Assembly: GCA_019242175.1 (NCBI GenBank)
Contig: JAFAVZ010000622.1
Coordinates: 1-33,832 of the forward strand
DNA length: 33,832 nucleotides
Direction: 5' to 3'
DNA from: Acidobacteriota bacterium
GTDB taxonomy: Bacteria; Acidobacteriota; Thermoanaerobaculia; Gp7-AA8
Below are positions 2,663 through 7,417 of this stretch, piece after piece. The notes below the pieces were generated by a model, which saw only the letters and a list, made by a program, of their open reading frames with translations, did not search any database and had not been told where the DNA came from. Position 1 is the first letter of the stretch. Each line of letters begins with the position of its first letter. A program made the position numbers and the translations under genes.

Positions 2663-3763
2663 TCACGAGGACACGAGCGATTGCCCCTCGTCGAACCAGC
2701 GCATCGAAGACGTCCAGCGTTCCGCGCGTGCCTTCGAGCGCTCGATCCCCAGCTCAAGCAGGCGCTCGATGAGCCGCGGGTACTTCAGCTCCGTCGCCTC
2801 CCACAGCTTCGGATACATCGAGATGCGGGTGAAGCCGGGCATGGTGTTGATCTCGTTCACGTAAAGCCGGTTCGTGCCGCGTTCGAGGAAAAAGTCGACG
2901 CGCGCCAGGCCGCTCGCACCGATCGCCCTGAACGCGGCGATCGCGAGCCGCCGCGTCTCCTCCACTTTCTCCTTGGGCAGCTTCGCCGGGATCACGAGCT
3001 GCGACTTGTCCTCGATGTACTTGTCGGCGTAGTCGTAGAACTCCCGCCCGGCGACGGTCTCGCCGGCGACGCTCGCTTCCGGTTTGTCGTTGCCGAGCAC
3101 CGCGATCTCGATCTCCCGCGCGTCGATGCCGCGTTCCACGAGCACCTTCTCGTCGAACCGCAGCGCGAAGGCGATGGCGTTCGCGAGATCCTCGTCGTTC
3201 TTCACCTTCGTCACGCCGACGGACGAGCCGCTGTTCGCCGGCTTCACGAAGTAGGGAAGGCGCAGCGCATTGTTCACGGCGCGCGTCACGCGTTCCCGTT
3301 CGCTGCGCCAGTCGCTGTCCTGCACCACGACCGACTCGACCATCGGCAGCTTCGCCGCGGCGAACGCATGCTTCATGTGCGCCTTGTCCATCCCCACCGC
3401 GGACGCCGTCACGCCGCTGCCGACGTAAGGCAGACCGAGGATGTCGAGATAGCCCTGGAGCGTGCCGTCTTCCCCGCCCGAGCCGTGGATCAGCGGAAAC
3501 AGGATGTCCGGCGCCTGCCCGCGAATCCACGTTTCAAACGAGAAATCGGCGTCGCCGCGTTCGCTCTTGTCGTCGCCGGCGAGGATGCGCGCGCTCCGCT
3601 CCGGCGTGCAGAACCGGCCGTCTTTCGCGATGCACATCGGCACGATCTCGATCCGCGGCTTCGGCGCCGCGTCGGCCACCGAGCGCGCGGAGAGGATCGA
3701 GACCTCGTGCTCCGCGGACCGGCCGCCGAACAGGAGGATCGTCTTGATGACGGCCGTGATCAT
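2663..3763 (-). CDS. ddl: D-alanine--D-alanine ligase
   Basis: ATP-grasp ligase joining two D-Ala for peptidoglycan precursors, cytoplasmic. At 366 residues it fits the long (VanA/DdlA-type) branch. Visible features are the N-terminal LLFGGRSAEHEVS with the substrate-binding Glu near residue 20, IHGSGGEDGTLQGYLD, the ATP-binding region VKPANSGSSVGVTKV, the EFYDYADKY segment of the omega loop whose Tyr is typical of true D-Ala-D-Ala ligases, and the C-terminal NEINTMPGFT with metal-binding Glu/Asn. The ATG at 3763 overlaps the stop of the MCE gene by 4 nt (ATGA), so translation is probably coupled; it is the last gene of the galU operon. The C-terminus ends LVSS, and the stop codon lies in repeat-like DNA (tgtcctcgTGAgg), so the last few residues may come from the family III repeat. 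Confidence 0.95.
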   Translation of the reverse strand: MITAVIKTILLFGGRSAEHEVSILSARSVADAAPKPRIEIVPMCIAKDGRFCTPERSARILAGDDKSERGDADFSFETWIRGQAPDILFPLIHGSGGEDGTLQGYLDILGLPYVGSGVTASAVGMDKAHMKHAFAAAKLPMVESVVVQDSDWRSERERVTRAVNNALRLPYFVKPANSGSSVGVTKVKNDEDLANAIAFALRFDEKVLVERGIDAREIEIAVLGNDKPEASVAGETVAGREFYDYADKYIEDKSQLVIPAKLPKEKVEETRRLAIAAFRAIGASGLARVDFFLERGTNRLYVNEINTMPGFTRISMYPKLWEATELKYPRLIERLLELGIERSKARAERWTSSMRWFDEGQSLVSS

Positions 3764-5301
3764 TTCCCGAGGGGGACGCTTCCCAGGAGGTACTTCAGAT
3801 CGTCGTCCCGCCAGCGCACGCCGCCGCCGAACGTGAACGCCGTGTCGTTGAGCGCGTTGTCGACGCCGCCGGTGACGAACAGCATCGGCGTCCGCGGCTT
3901 CTCCTTGCGCACGACGTATTCGCCGAACACGCGCACGTGCGGGTTCGGATCGCGGCGTTTGCTGAAGTCGAACATCTCGCCCGTGATCCGGATCCGGTCG
4001 TTGAGCTTGTAGTCGAGGCCCGCGCCGCCGGTGTTGTCGAAGAGGCCGAGGCGAACGGCGTAGTTGTCGAGGTTCCAGCCCGCCTGCGCGGAGATGAGGA
4101 AGTCGCGATCGAACTTCGTCTCCTTCGTTACCTGCGTCGAGCTGGCGCCGGTGAGCGGATCGACGATCGTCGTCTCGAAGATCTTGTCGCGCCGCCGTCC
4201 CTTCGGATCGTCGGCGAGCTCGATGTTGTAGAAGCGGTTGCGATCGGGATTCGGAACGAGCCGCAGCTCGACCGCCGCGCGCGACGTGCCGACGATGTCC
4301 TGGTCGATGTTCGAAGCGCCGGTCACGTTCTTGTCGAGGCCCGCGTAGTAGTTCGACTTGATGCCGAGGTCCATGCCGATGCGGTTCGCGCGGCCGAGGG
4401 TGTTCTTCAGCTCGTTCACGCCGCTCTCGACCGACGACAACGCGCTGGTCAGCTTCTCGTGCGCTTCGTCGCTGTAGAGCAGCTTGCCGACGGTGCCTTC
4501 GCCGCTCTTCACCTGGCCCGTGATCGAGTTGAGGTTGTCTGCCGTGGTGCGCAGATCGTGGGAGAGGCCTTTGAGATTGTCGACGACCACGCGGATGTCT
4601 TCCCGATTGTCTCCGACCGTGCCGCCGATCTGGTTCGCCACGCGGTCGATGTCCGCCGCGAGCCGCGGGATCTCGACCTTCAGCGCCGCGGTGATCTCCC
4701 GCGCGTTCGCCATCGTCGCATCGACGTTCGTGCGGTTCGCCGCGATGAGCGCGCGCACTTCCGCCGTGATGCCGCGAACGTTCTCGACGATGTCTTCCAG
4801 CCGCTGCTGGCCCGTCTGTCCGGCCATGACGTTGCGCAGCGACGCGGTGATCGCCTTCACGTCTGTGGCGATGTCCGAAACCTGATTCGTCACGTCGTCG
4901 AAGCTCGGAGGCGCGCTGCCCTTCAGCACGATCTCCTTCTGGGCCATGACCGGAGCCGCTTCCGTACCCGGATCGAGCTCGACGTACTTCTCGCCGAGCA
5001 GGCCGAGGTTTGCCACGCGCGCCGCGGCGTTGCTGCGCAGCGGCACGTCGTCGTCGACCTCCAGCGTCACTTCCGCCTTGCCCGTCGGCAGCACCTGGAT
5101 CTTCGTGACCTTTCCCTTGCGCACGCCGGCCACGCGCACGGGCGACTTCTCATCGAGGCCGGCCACGTTGTCGAACGTCACTTTGATCGTGCGCGTGTTT
5201 TTGCCGCGGGAGAGGTCGATGTCCTCGATCCTCAAAGCGAAGTAGCCGAGGATGGCCAGGACGACGAGCATGAAGGCGCCGATTTTTGCTGCGGAAGACA
5301 T
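3760..5301 (-). CDS. MCE/MlaD-family protein with beta-rich C-terminus
   Basis: Periplasmic lipid-transport protein of 513 residues. One N-terminal membrane anchor (about 6-24) is followed by a single MCE domain (about 37-112; VTFDNVAGLDEKSPVRVAGV and NLGLLGEKYVELDPG are characteristic). A long helical, coiled-coil-like region follows (about 125-310), with many amphipathic repeats such as VRALIAANRTNVDATMANAR. A C-terminal domain (about 320-513) alternates polar and hydrophobic residues like a beta-barrel or beta-sandwich, with segments such as AAVELRLVPNPDRNRFYNI, FLISAQAGWNLDNYAVRLG and DYKLNDRIRITGEMFDFS. MCE proteins shuttle phospholipid or other lipids between the membranes. No MlaE/MlaF permease or ATPase gene is nearby. 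It sits 3 nt after maf and overlaps ddl by 4 nt, inside an envelope-biogenesis operon. The barrel-like reading of the C-terminus is inference. Confidence 0.88.
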   Translation of the reverse strand: MSSAAKIGAFMLVVLAILGYFALRIEDIDLSRGKNTRTIKVTFDNVAGLDEKSPVRVAGVRKGKVTKIQVLPTGKAEVTLEVDDDVPLRSNAAARVANLGLLGEKYVELDPGTEAAPVMAQKEIVLKGSAPPSFDDVTNQVSDIATDVKAITASLRNVMAGQTGQQRLEDIVENVRGITAEVRALIAANRTNVDATMANAREITAALKVEIPRLAADIDRVANQIGGTVGDNREDIRVVVDNLKGLSHDLRTTADNLNSITGQVKSGEGTVGKLLYSDEAHEKLTSALSSVESGVNELKNTLGRANRIGMDLGIKSNYYAGLDKNVTGASNIDQDIVGTSRAAVELRLVPNPDRNRFYNIELADDPKGRRRDKIFETTIVDPLTGASSTQVTKETKFDRDFLISAQAGWNLDNYAVRLGLFDNTGGAGLDYKLNDRIRITGEMFDFSKRRDPNPHVRVFGEYVVRKEKPRTPMLFVTGGVDNALNDTAFTFGGGVRWRDDDLKYLLGSVPLGK

Positions 5302-5304
5302 GGG

Positions 5305-5895
5305 TTACTCCGATTTGGTTTTCAGCGGATCGAGCCCCGCGGCGCGGAGCATTCGGAAAAGCAAAGCAAGTGGCAATCCAACAACGTTCGTATAACTACC
5401 GTGAATGGAGTCGATGAACAACGCTCCGATGCCTTGTACGGCGTAGGCACCGGCCTTGTCGAGCGGCTCGCCGGTACGGACATACCATTCGATGTCGTCC
5501 GCGTCGAGAGAAAGCATGGAGACTTCCGACTCCGCGACGCGCGTGTCGCGGTAATCGTTGGCGACATTTTGCAGCGTGACGCCCGTGTACACGATGTGCG
5601 TTTGTCCTGCGATCGTGGCCAGCATGCGCTCCGCGTCTTTCGCATCGACCGGCTTCTCCAGCAGTTGCTCGCCGAGGAGCACCGTCGTGTCGGCCGCGAT
5701 GATCCATCGATCGGGATACGTGCGCGCGACTTCGGCAGCCTTCTCCCGCGACAACCGCGCAACGTAGTCCGTCGGCGTCTCGTCTTCACCGCGCACTTCG
5801 GGGATGTGGCTTGGCACGACGTCGAACTCTGCGCCGATCGAAGCAAGCAACTCCCGCCGCCTCGGCGAAGCTGAGGCTAGAACGAACCGGGTCAT
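5305..5895 (-). CDS. maf: Maf-family nucleoside triphosphate pyrophosphatase
   Basis: House-cleaning nucleotide pyrophosphatase that hydrolyses dTTP/UTP or modified NTPs to monophosphates. The 196-residue length matches the family. The signature LASASPRRRELL is at residues 6-17, the catalytic IIAADTTVLLGEQLLEKP at about 65-82, and the typical end GSYTNVVGLPLALLFRMLR is present. A longer frame exists upstream to 5988, but the family signature begins right after the ATG at 5895, and this ATG overlaps the stop of the upstream fusion gene by 4 nt (ATGA). Downstream, the MCE gene starts 3 nt after the stop. In many bacteria maf sits among cell-shape or envelope genes, which fits this operon. Confidence 0.95.
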   Translation of the reverse strand: MTRFVLASASPRRRELLASIGAEFDVVPSHIPEVRGEDETPTDYVARLSREKAAEVARTYPDRWIIAADTTVLLGEQLLEKPVDAKDAERMLATIAGQTHIVYTGVTLQNVANDYRDTRVAESEVSMLSLDADDIEWYVRTGEPLDKAGAYAVQGIGALFIDSIHGSYTNVVGLPLALLFRMLRAAGLDPLKTKSE

Positions 5896-6383
5896 GGCGT
5901 CGCTCTCCCCACATTCACCACCAAAATGAACCGAGCCTCGGGGAAGATGCGATAAACGATGCGCAGATGTTCGGTGCGATAGCTCCACAGCCCGCGCAAC
6001 GGTTCGAAGAGTGGCGCGCCCGCGATCGGATCTTCGTCGATGCGCTCGTACGCCTTCGCGACGAATGCGCGCTCGTTCTCGGCGAGCGGAAACGCCGCGA
6101 CGGAGTCGGGGATGCGTACCCGGTCGTTCGCGACGTTCGGCTCCGGCGTGTCGATCATTCCTTTGCGCGCTTCTTCGTCGGCGGTGTCGATGAGCGCGCG
6201 CAACGCGTCGTCCGCCGCGATGGCGATCGTCTCGCGCAACGCGAGGTACTCGTCATGCGAGATCAAAATCGCCACCGCCCGGCCGTTGCGCTCGAAAGTC
6301 GTCCGGCTGCCGGTCAGCTCACACTCGCCGACGATCGTTCTTACGTCGCTCGGGAGGTCGAGAATCTCCAGCCGCTTTTCCAT
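5892..6383 (-). CDS. Antitoxin-toxin-like fusion (Phd/YefM-like + ParE/RelE-like)
   Basis: A single uninterrupted 163-residue frame that reads like two halves of a type II toxin-antitoxin pair. Residues 1 to about 75 resemble a Phd/YefM antitoxin: a short strand-helix head, then TTFERNGRAVAILISHDEY (the family's 'G+xvAvLvs..eY' core), then an acidic helix. Residues about 88-163 resemble a ParE/RelE-fold toxin: VRIPDSVAAFPL, a helix pair, then LRGLWSYRTEHLRIVYRIF and a final strand ILVVNVGR. The usual C-terminal 'gHRxxVY' is replaced by GRATP, so activity may be lost. The ATG at 6383 lies inside galU (65-nt overlap) with a weak GAGGGA 11 nt upstream; the stop overlaps maf by 4 nt. Either a domesticated TA module or a self-neutralised RNase-fold regulator is possible. 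Domain calls are by pattern only. Confidence 0.72.
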   Translation of the reverse strand: MEKRLEILDLPSDVRTIVGECELTGSRTTFERNGRAVAILISHDEYLALRETIAIAADDALRALIDTADEEARKGMIDTPEPNVANDRVRIPDSVAAFPLAENERAFVAKAYERIDEDPIAGAPLFEPLRGLWSYRTEHLRIVYRIFPEARFILVVNVGRATP

Positions 6384-7245
6384 CGCCGAACAGTCCCTCG
6401 AGATACGCCCGGAAGTCTGCGCCGAGCTTCGGATGCTTCAGCGCGTAGTCGACCGTCGCCTTCAGATAGCCGAGCTTCTCGCCGGCGTCGTAACGCTTGC
6501 CGTCGAACACGTAACCATAGAACTCACCGCTCCGCGCCAGCTCGCGCAAAGCGTCCGTGAGCTGGATCTCGCCACCCGCGCCGCGCTCCGTCTTCTCCAG
6601 GAGCGGGAAGATGTCCGGCGGCAGGATGTAGCGCCCGATGATCGCGAACCGCGACGGCGGACTGACCTTCGGCTTCTCCACCATGTCCCGCACGCGGAAC
6701 ACGCGGTCGCGAATCTCTTCGCCTTTGATGATGCCGTACCGCGAGGTCTCTTCCTGCGAGACTTCCATCAGCGCGATCACCGGCCGCCCGGTCTCTTCGA
6801 ACACGCGCCGCATCTGCATCAGACACGGATCGTCGGCGAGGATGACGTCGTCCGGCAACACGACCGCGAACGGATGATCGCCGACCGCGTCGTGCGCCAT
6901 CAGTACGGCGTGGCCGAGGCCGAGCGCTTCTTTCTGGCGGACGGTGATGAGGTCGACCATGCTGCTGACCGCATCGACTTCGGCGAGCAGGTCCGTCTTG
7001 CCGCGTTCCTTGAGGGAGCGCTCGAGCTCCGACGTGCGGTCGAAGTGATCGATGATCGTGTCTTTGCCCTTCGACGAGACGATGATCAGCTTGTCGAGCC
7101 CTGACCCCAACGCCTCCTCGATGCCGTACTGCAGAATCGGCTTGTCGACCAACGGGAGCATCTCTTTCGGGATGACCTTGGTGGCCGGAAAGAACCTCGT
7201 GCCGAATCCGGCGCAGGGAAAAACACACGTGCGGAGGCTGGGCAT
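6319..7245 (-). CDS. galU: UTP--glucose-1-phosphate uridylyltransferase
   Basis: Makes UDP-glucose from UTP and glucose-1-phosphate for envelope polysaccharides. The protein is 308 residues from the chosen ATG at 7245. The nucleotidyltransferase signature CAGFGTRFFPATKVIPKEML lies at the N-terminus, followed by LPLVDKPILQYGIEEAL, a metal-binding Asp in VVLPDDVIL, EKPKVSPPSRFAIIGRY and GEIQLTDAL, all typical of bacterial GalU. Frames extending to 7383 run through a family I repeat and are rejected. An alternative ATG at 7260 overlaps a TATGCT -10-like box whose position favours 7245. The last 21 residues (GKAAGDSRPPERRKNDRRRV region) are a basic tail beyond the usual GalU end and overlap the start of the fusion gene by 65 nt. 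First gene of the galU-fusion-maf-mce-ddl operon. Confidence 0.95.
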   Translation of the reverse strand: MPSLRTCVFPCAGFGTRFFPATKVIPKEMLPLVDKPILQYGIEEALGSGLDKLIIVSSKGKDTIIDHFDRTSELERSLKERGKTDLLAEVDAVSSMVDLITVRQKEALGLGHAVLMAHDAVGDHPFAVVLPDDVILADDPCLMQMRRVFEETGRPVIALMEVSQEETSRYGIIKGEEIRDRVFRVRDMVEKPKVSPPSRFAIIGRYILPPDIFPLLEKTERGAGGEIQLTDALRELARSGEFYGYVFDGKRYDAGEKLGYLKATVDYALKHPKLGADFRAYLEGLFGDGKAAGDSRPPERRKNDRRRV

Positions 7246-7261: not shown

Positions 7262-7270
7262 ACGCGAGAA

Positions 7271-7369
7271 CGTAGGGCCGGCTCTCCAGCCGGCCCAGCA
7301 GACAAGGTCGCGGCGGGCAACGCCCGCCGCATCATTCTCGACTGCGGCCGGCTGAGAGCCGGCCCTACG
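7271..7369. repeat. Family I palindromic element, long form
   Basis: Outer inverted arms of about 25 bp (cgtagggccggctctccagc... and its complement ending ggccctacg) enclose about 50 bp with an inner hairpin, ggcgggcaacgcccgcc. The only other long-form copy is at 23733-23842 and carries the inner segment in the opposite orientation. It lies between the divergent galU and propeller genes, upstream of the predicted promoters of both. Confidence 0.9.
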
Positions 7370-7388
7370 TGCCCGCCGTGCACCGTTA

Positions 7389-7417
7389 TTGCTTAGCGAC
7401 ATCAGCTGATACAGAAT
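7389..7417 (+). promoter_or_regulatory. Predicted sigma-70-type promoter for the propeller gene
   Basis: TTGCTT (7389-7394), a 17-bp spacer and CAGAAT (7412-7417), 18 nt before the ATG at 7436. This is the only site in the window where I see both boxes at canonical spacing. Confidence 0.4.

What the first reader, a model, noticed from the sequence alone, without database searches (positions are those of the whole stretch)
5892..6383. One-chain antitoxin-toxin-like protein inside the galU-maf operon
A Phd/YefM-like N-terminal half and a ParE/RelE-like C-terminal half are read in a single 163-residue frame. It is locked between housekeeping genes, with a 65-nt overlap into galU and a 4-nt overlap into maf. 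TA partners are normally separate chains, so permanent 1:1 linkage would remove the usual release of toxin by antitoxin decay. The toxin's usual C-terminal HRxxVY is replaced by GRATP, while two RGLW/YR-type arginines remain. It may be a domesticated regulator, for example autorepressing the envelope operon, or a protease-activated RNase.
Basis: partly seen in the sequence, partly recalled or inferred. Interest (0 to 1): 0.62.

Follow-up and report, generated by a model that had tools for sequence, protein, structure and literature searches.

The report
Fused, probably disarmed RelBE-like antitoxin-toxin protein
A bacterial antitoxin and its toxin, which most related species still make as two separate proteins from the same spot in a sugar/cell-wall operon, are here joined into one protein whose toxin half has lost residues that such toxins need to cut RNA, so it is probably a tamed regulator rather than a poison.

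Summary
Window 5892-6383(-) is one conserved 163-residue frame: a Phd/YefM-type antitoxin half joined to a RelE-fold half, overlapping galU by 65 nt and maf by 4 nt. The halves independently match the two chains of Mycobacterium RelBE1/RelBE2. All 16 genomes of its Acidobacteriota family in which the junction is assembled carry the pair, 14 with galU just upstream; the order-level outgroup checked has galU-maf with nothing between. Twelve genomes keep two genes; four, including this one, are fused, each with a different junction. Housekeeping genes reject the fused genomes as one clade, so the fusion arose more than once or moved by recombination. The missing HRxxVY tail is not a feature of the fusion: all 16 toxins lack the tyrosine and 15 lack the arginine that RelE toxins need; class relatives keep both. 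Best reading: a RelBE-type pair disarmed and domesticated at the base of the family, probably a Phd-type DNA-binding regulator, which made fusion tolerable. Protease release of an RNase is unlikely. Antitoxin-toxin fusions, including YefM-YoeB and one Phd-RelE, are already published: a new variant of a known kind. Toxicity and DNA binding are untested.

The parts
5892..6383 (-). fused antitoxin-toxin-like gene, 163 aa
   Evidence: ORF; Pfam; relatives; predicted structure
6156..6383 (-). Phd/YefM (RelB)-like antitoxin half, residues 1-76; acidic residues E45 (codon 6249-6251) and E51 (codon 6231-6233) invariant in all 16 relatives
   Evidence: Pfam PF02604; alignment A3; profile match to RelB1 and Rv2865
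6129..6155 (-). junction/linker, residues 77-85 (IDTPEPNVA), replacing the antitoxin tail PEDLF(G/E)E-stop and the toxin start codon of two-gene relatives
   Evidence: junction comparison
5895..6128 (-). RelE-fold half, residues 86-163; R136 (codon 5976-5978) and R141 (5961-5963) kept, catalytic Arg position is A161 (5901-5903), C-terminal Tyr helix absent
   Evidence: Pfam PF05016; PDB profile; fold search; catalytic columns
6319..7245 (-). galU, overlaps the fused gene by 65 nt
   Evidence: TIGR01099 above cut-off; ORF frame
5305..5895 (-). maf, overlaps the fused gene by 4 nt (ATGA)
   Evidence: TIGR00172 above cut-off
3760..5301 (-). MlaD/MCE-domain gene, next in the conserved gene order
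   Evidence: PF02470; synteny
2663..3763 (-). D-Ala-D-Ala ligase, next in the conserved gene order
   Evidence: TIGR01205 above cut-off; synteny

Best explanation
A two-gene RelBE-type module (Phd/YefM-like antitoxin, RelE-fold toxin) entered the galU-maf junction in the ancestor of this Acidobacteriota family and was kept by descent. Its toxin half lost the general-acid Arg and the C-terminal Tyr helix, so it probably no longer cuts RNA, while the fold, two substrate-side arginines and the antitoxin-toxin clamp were kept. With little or no toxicity left to neutralise, joining the genes was tolerable, and in more than one lineage (or in one whose allele later spread) the frames were joined. 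Inferred: the fused chain dimerises through its Phd half with the RelE half docked on the antitoxin helices and acts as a DNA-binding repressor that tunes its own operon, without releasing a toxin. Shown by computation: homology, fold, synteny, empty outgroup site, catalytic losses, two-gene relatives, purifying selection on those relatives. Not shown: absence of toxicity, DNA binding, regulation.
For: Both halves independently match the two partners of RelBE1/RelBE2. All family genomes with the junction assembled carry the pair; outgroup G018 has galU-maf-mlaD with an empty site. In RelE1, R60A, R65A, R85A and Y89A impair toxicity (PMC12620021): R60/R65 equivalents are kept (15/16 and 16/16), the R85 position is A/V/S in 15/16, no member has the Tyr, while three class relatives from other families keep Arg and Tyr. 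Two-gene toxins evolve under purifying selection, dN/dS 0.045-0.13. Antitoxin E51, aligned to RelB1 E50 that pairs with RelE1 R65, is invariant in all 16, as is the matching toxin Arg. The fused window chain lost the antitoxin tail but kept 23 of 25 toxin sites invariant in two-gene forms. No plasmid or phage copies.
Against: No operator was found (a crude scan). Loss of catalytic residues predicts but does not prove lack of toxicity; RelE-fold toxins of the ParE type act without them. Strong conservation of R136 and R141 could mean that some nucleic-acid activity remains. No two fused genomes are close enough to measure selection on the fused form. The alignment of the catalytic Arg could be off by one, since R160 is next to A161.
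Confidence: 0.5

Rival explanations
1. Working single-chain toxin-antitoxin: the antitoxin half holds a still-active toxin in cis, and proteolysis, a phage protein or a conformational change frees it, as in EzeT or CapRel.
For: Covalent antitoxin-toxin chains that work this way exist (PMC4826407, PMC4803016; CapRel). The fold, R136, R141 and the clamp residues are conserved.
Against: General-acid Arg and Tyr are missing in fused and two-gene forms alike. In the window and G016 the antitoxin tail is lost. The locus is inherited with housekeeping genes, unlike most defence genes.
Confidence: 0.2
2. Relic: a disarmed pair kept open mainly because its frame couples galU and maf translation; the fusion is a neutral step of decay.
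For: Overlaps couple it to galU and maf. The G016 fusion has lost 9 of 25 otherwise invariant toxin sites. A Phd-RelE fusion in Ralstonia eutropha was proposed to be inactive.
Against: Two-gene forms show dN/dS as low as galU; three of four fused forms keep 23-24 of 25 invariant sites; amino-acid conservation exceeds what coupling alone needs.
Confidence: 0.17
3. ParE-like inhibitor of gyrase or of another target that does not need the RelE catalytic residues, still held by its antitoxin half.
For: Pfam calls the half ParE_toxin, and ParE toxins lack BECR catalytic residues (PMC11980606).
Against: Sequence profiles and fold search rank mycobacterial RelE first; ParE structures come later.
Confidence: 0.09
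4. Artefact: a sequencing or assembly indel joins two genes.
For: Draft assembly of 686 contigs; the junction differs from two-gene relatives by 1 nt in length.
Against: No frame at the junction encodes the lost PEDLF tail, the TGA codon is gone, and three other genomes carry fusions with different junctions.
Confidence: 0.03

Closest known systems
Mycobacterium tuberculosis RelBE1 (Rv1247c-Rv1246c, PDB 9g12) and RelBE2 (Rv2865-Rv2866, PDB 3g5o)
   Same: Phd-like antitoxin followed by RelE-fold toxin; both halves are best matches by sequence profile, the toxin half also by fold; clamp residues aligned.
   Different: Two chains there; RelE1 has R85 and Y89 and cleaves 16S rRNA; here one chain, Arg and Tyr lost, placed in the galU-maf operon.
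YefM-YoeB and other RelE/ParE-superfamily antitoxin-toxin fusions (PMC11980606)
   Same: N-terminal Phd/YefM half and C-terminal BECR-fold half in one chain.
   Different: YoeB-type toxins, reported as scattered examples; here RelBE1/2-type, in one operon position across a family with two-gene sister forms and catalytic losses.
Phd-RelE fusion of Ralstonia eutropha (cited in PMC4826407)
   Same: Same domain pair in one chain, also proposed to be inactive.
   Different: Reported as truncated in both parts; sequence not compared here.
EzeT of Escherichia coli
   Same: Antitoxin and toxin in one chain, antitoxin at the N-terminus.
   Different: Zeta-type kinase toxin, shown active once the N-terminus is removed; unrelated fold.

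Membership tests
Type II toxin-antitoxin module, RelBE (mycobacterial RelBE1/2 type) | Phd/YefM-like antitoxin gene followed by RelE-fold toxin gene | tested here: met
   Both domains present in that order; two separate genes in 12 relatives, one chain here
Type II toxin-antitoxin module, RelBE (mycobacterial RelBE1/2 type) | Toxin carries the residues needed for activity (R60, R65, R85, Y89 of RelE1) | tested here: not met
   R60 and R65 equivalents kept; R85 position is Ala here and Tyr absent
Type II toxin-antitoxin module, RelBE (mycobacterial RelBE1/2 type) | Toxin arrests growth and antitoxin neutralises it | not testable with these tools
   Needs expression experiments
Type II toxin-antitoxin module, RelBE (mycobacterial RelBE1/2 type) | Operator palindrome bound by the antitoxin at the operon promoter | tested here: inconclusive
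   Simple palindrome scan upstream of galU or of the antitoxin gene in 15 loci showed none shared; no binding data
Single-chain antitoxin-toxin fusions | Antitoxin and toxin domains in one uninterrupted frame | tested here: met
   163-aa frame; same in G014, G011, G016
Single-chain antitoxin-toxin fusions | Toxic when the antitoxin half is removed | not testable with these tools
   Needs expression of residues 86-163
ParDE | ParE-type toxin closest to solved ParE structures | tested here: not met
   RelE structures rank first by sequence and fold
ParDE | ParD-type ribbon-helix-helix antitoxin | tested here: not met
   Antitoxin half matches Phd/YefM and RelB1

The most novel reading that the evidence does not exclude
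A RelE toxin lost its RNase residues but not its fold or antitoxin clamp, became a fixed member of a housekeeping operon across a whole bacterial family, and was then joined to its antitoxin several times independently, by different frame changes at or near the short gene overlap: a replicated natural experiment in which disarming comes before fusion and the complex works as a one-chain regulator.
Probability: 0.35. Interest if true: 0.62.

Novelty: new variant of a known kind. Interest (0 to 1): 0.45.

Why it matters
It gives a within-family series (empty site, two adjacent or overlapping genes, one chain) for how a toxin-antitoxin pair can be tamed. It separates two steps usually guessed at together: the loss of catalytic residues is shared by two-gene and fused forms, so it most likely came first, and the fusion came later, in some lineages only. 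It also warns that a conserved fused antitoxin-toxin gene need not be a one-chain toxin or a defence protein.

Tried and rejected
Sequencing error as the cause of the fusion: rejected on junction sequence and independent genomes. Mobile module: no plasmid or phage match. Fusion as a general habit of Phd-RelE pairs in these genomes: neighbouring PF02604/PF05016 pairs elsewhere in the family (about nine, read from the tables by eye) lie in different frames, but the numbers are too small for a test. A single fusion inherited by descent: rejected by housekeeping genes (AU p 0.002), but the short antitoxin and toxin sequences do not reject a fused clade (p about 0.6), so recombination of one fused allele remains open. 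Deeper branches of the housekeeping tree are poorly supported, so the exact number of fusions is not known. Shared operator palindrome upstream: none seen. Internal start for a toxin-only isoform: ATG at residue 76 follows AAAGGA directly, too close to be convincing. Docking of the two halves in the predicted models could not be examined, since only confidence and secondary structure are returned. Literature search for such a locus in Acidobacteriota: nothing relevant.

Full report
Observation. The window carries one frame of 163 codons at 5892-6383 on the minus strand. galU ends at 6319, so the overlap is 65 nt; the stop overlaps the maf start in ATGA. Pfam finds a Phd/YefM antitoxin match in the first half (below its curated cut-off) and a RelE/ParE-superfamily toxin in the second. 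The gene is single-copy in its genome. NCBIfam names the neighbours galU, maf and D-Ala-D-Ala ligase; the MlaD/MCE gene matches at domain level.

Relatives. A search of the 18 available genomes of the same family found the protein in 16. Of the other two, G002 has contigs that end inside galU and maf, and in G005 neither galU nor maf was found. The gene order galU, antitoxin, toxin, maf, mlaD, ddl is conserved wherever the contigs reach, in 14 of 16 genomes. Two genomes (G004, G011) have no galU here or elsewhere in the assembly; there the antitoxin gene lies beside the same divergent BNR/YCF48-like gene. Named relatives are Acidobacteriota and Thermoanaerobaculia assemblies. The order-level outgroup G018 has galU, maf and mlaD with nothing between galU and maf: an empty site. 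Outside the family the best toxin homologues score far lower (5e-14 against 1e-32 or better).

Two genes or one. In 12 genomes the halves are separate genes. In five they overlap by 11 nt, in G008 they are 2 nt apart, and in six a spacer of 82-147 nt separates them. In four genomes (the window, G014, G011, G016) they form one frame. The four junctions differ: G011 keeps the antitoxin tail PEDLFG and adds a short linker; G014 keeps EDL; the window has lost the tail (PEPNVA) with a 1-nt frame change; G016 has also lost the toxin's NDR start. G016 is fused while its congener G017 is not, and housekeeping genes join these two with 100% support. A tree with all fused genomes as one clade is rejected by the housekeeping genes (AU p 0.002). 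The short antitoxin and toxin sequences do not reject a fused clade (p about 0.6), and all four fused toxins share a His (EHLRI) found in none of the 12 others. So either the fusion arose more than once, or one fused allele moved by recombination.

What the halves are. Profiles of each half were compared with solved structures separately. The toxin profile finds Rv2866 and RelE1 first; the antitoxin profile finds RelB1 and Rv2865. These are the partners in two solved complexes. The predicted structure of the window protein has mean pLDDT 81.6 (RelE half about 95), and its best fold matches are the same toxins; the G011 fusion gives the same answer.

Is the toxin armed? In RelE1, R60A, R65A, R85A and Y89A impair toxicity (PMC12620021). 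Across the family the R60 and R65 positions are kept (R136 and R141 here; 15 and 16 of 16). The R85 position is Ala, Val or Ser in 15 of 16 (A161 here), and no family member has a Tyr in the tail. Three homologues from other families of the same class keep both Arg and Tyr. The Arg alignment could be off by one residue (R160 is adjacent).

Selection. In close pairs of two-gene relatives the toxin has dN/dS 0.045-0.13 and the antitoxin 0.07-0.24, similar to galU and mlaD. The fused toxins keep 23, 23, 24 and, in G016, 16 of 25 sites invariant in the two-gene forms. No pair of fused genomes is close enough to measure dN/dS directly. E45 and E51 of the antitoxin are invariant in all 16. In the ungapped alignment, E51 falls on RelB1 E50, which forms a salt bridge with RelE1 R65 in the solved complex (PMC12620021); R65 corresponds to R141 here. 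The clamp therefore appears conserved even in the fused chains; this is inferred from homology.

Mechanism. The most likely reading is a disarmed RelBE complex kept for its Phd-type dimer with the RelE half as a structural partner, tuning the operon it sits in. DNA binding, an operator and lack of toxicity are not shown; a simple scan of the upstream region found no shared palindrome. Rivals are an active cis-neutralised toxin, a relic kept open by translational coupling, and a ParE-like activity.

Known kinds. Fused antitoxin-toxin genes are published: EzeT, 195 RelE/ParE-superfamily fusions including YefM-YoeB, and a Phd-RelE chain in Ralstonia eutropha thought to be inactive. This is therefore a new variant of a known kind. 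What is unusual is the whole-family conservation in a housekeeping operon, the empty site in the outgroup, and the side-by-side two-gene and fused states after the catalytic loss.

Noticed in passing
window 7376-7396 (+), and the same place upstream of the divergent BNR/YCF48-like gene in relatives (L035-L047, L077): A GG-N10-GC element (typically GGCAGC-N4-TTGCTT), resembling a sigma-54 -24/-12 promoter, lies 24-57 nt before the divergent gene in 11 of the 15 loci scanned; in the window, G011 and G001 the GG is degenerate while TTGCT is kept. The genome encodes a sigma-54.
   Followed up: partly
window about 7268-7369: A roughly 100-bp element with matching inverted ends (ACGTAGGGCCGGCTCTC ... 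GAGAGCCGGCCCTACGT) sits between galU and the divergent gene, like a small non-autonomous repeat element.
   Followed up: no
G004 (L048) and G011 (L035): galU is missing from the locus and was not found elsewhere in these assemblies (97% and 99% complete), although the rest of the operon is kept.
   Followed up: partly
antitoxin-toxin spacers of L037, L038, L042-L045 and the galU upstream regions of L042 and L043: Where the two genes are apart, the 82-147 nt spacers differ between genomes and several contain short tandem or inverted repeats, as do some galU upstream regions, as if small repeats had inserted repeatedly into this operon.
   Followed up: no
fused toxins: window residues 138-139 and the same columns of L034, L035, L036: All four fused toxins carry EH before LRI, while none of the 12 two-gene toxins has the His: either common origin of the fused alleles or a convergent change.
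   Followed up: partly
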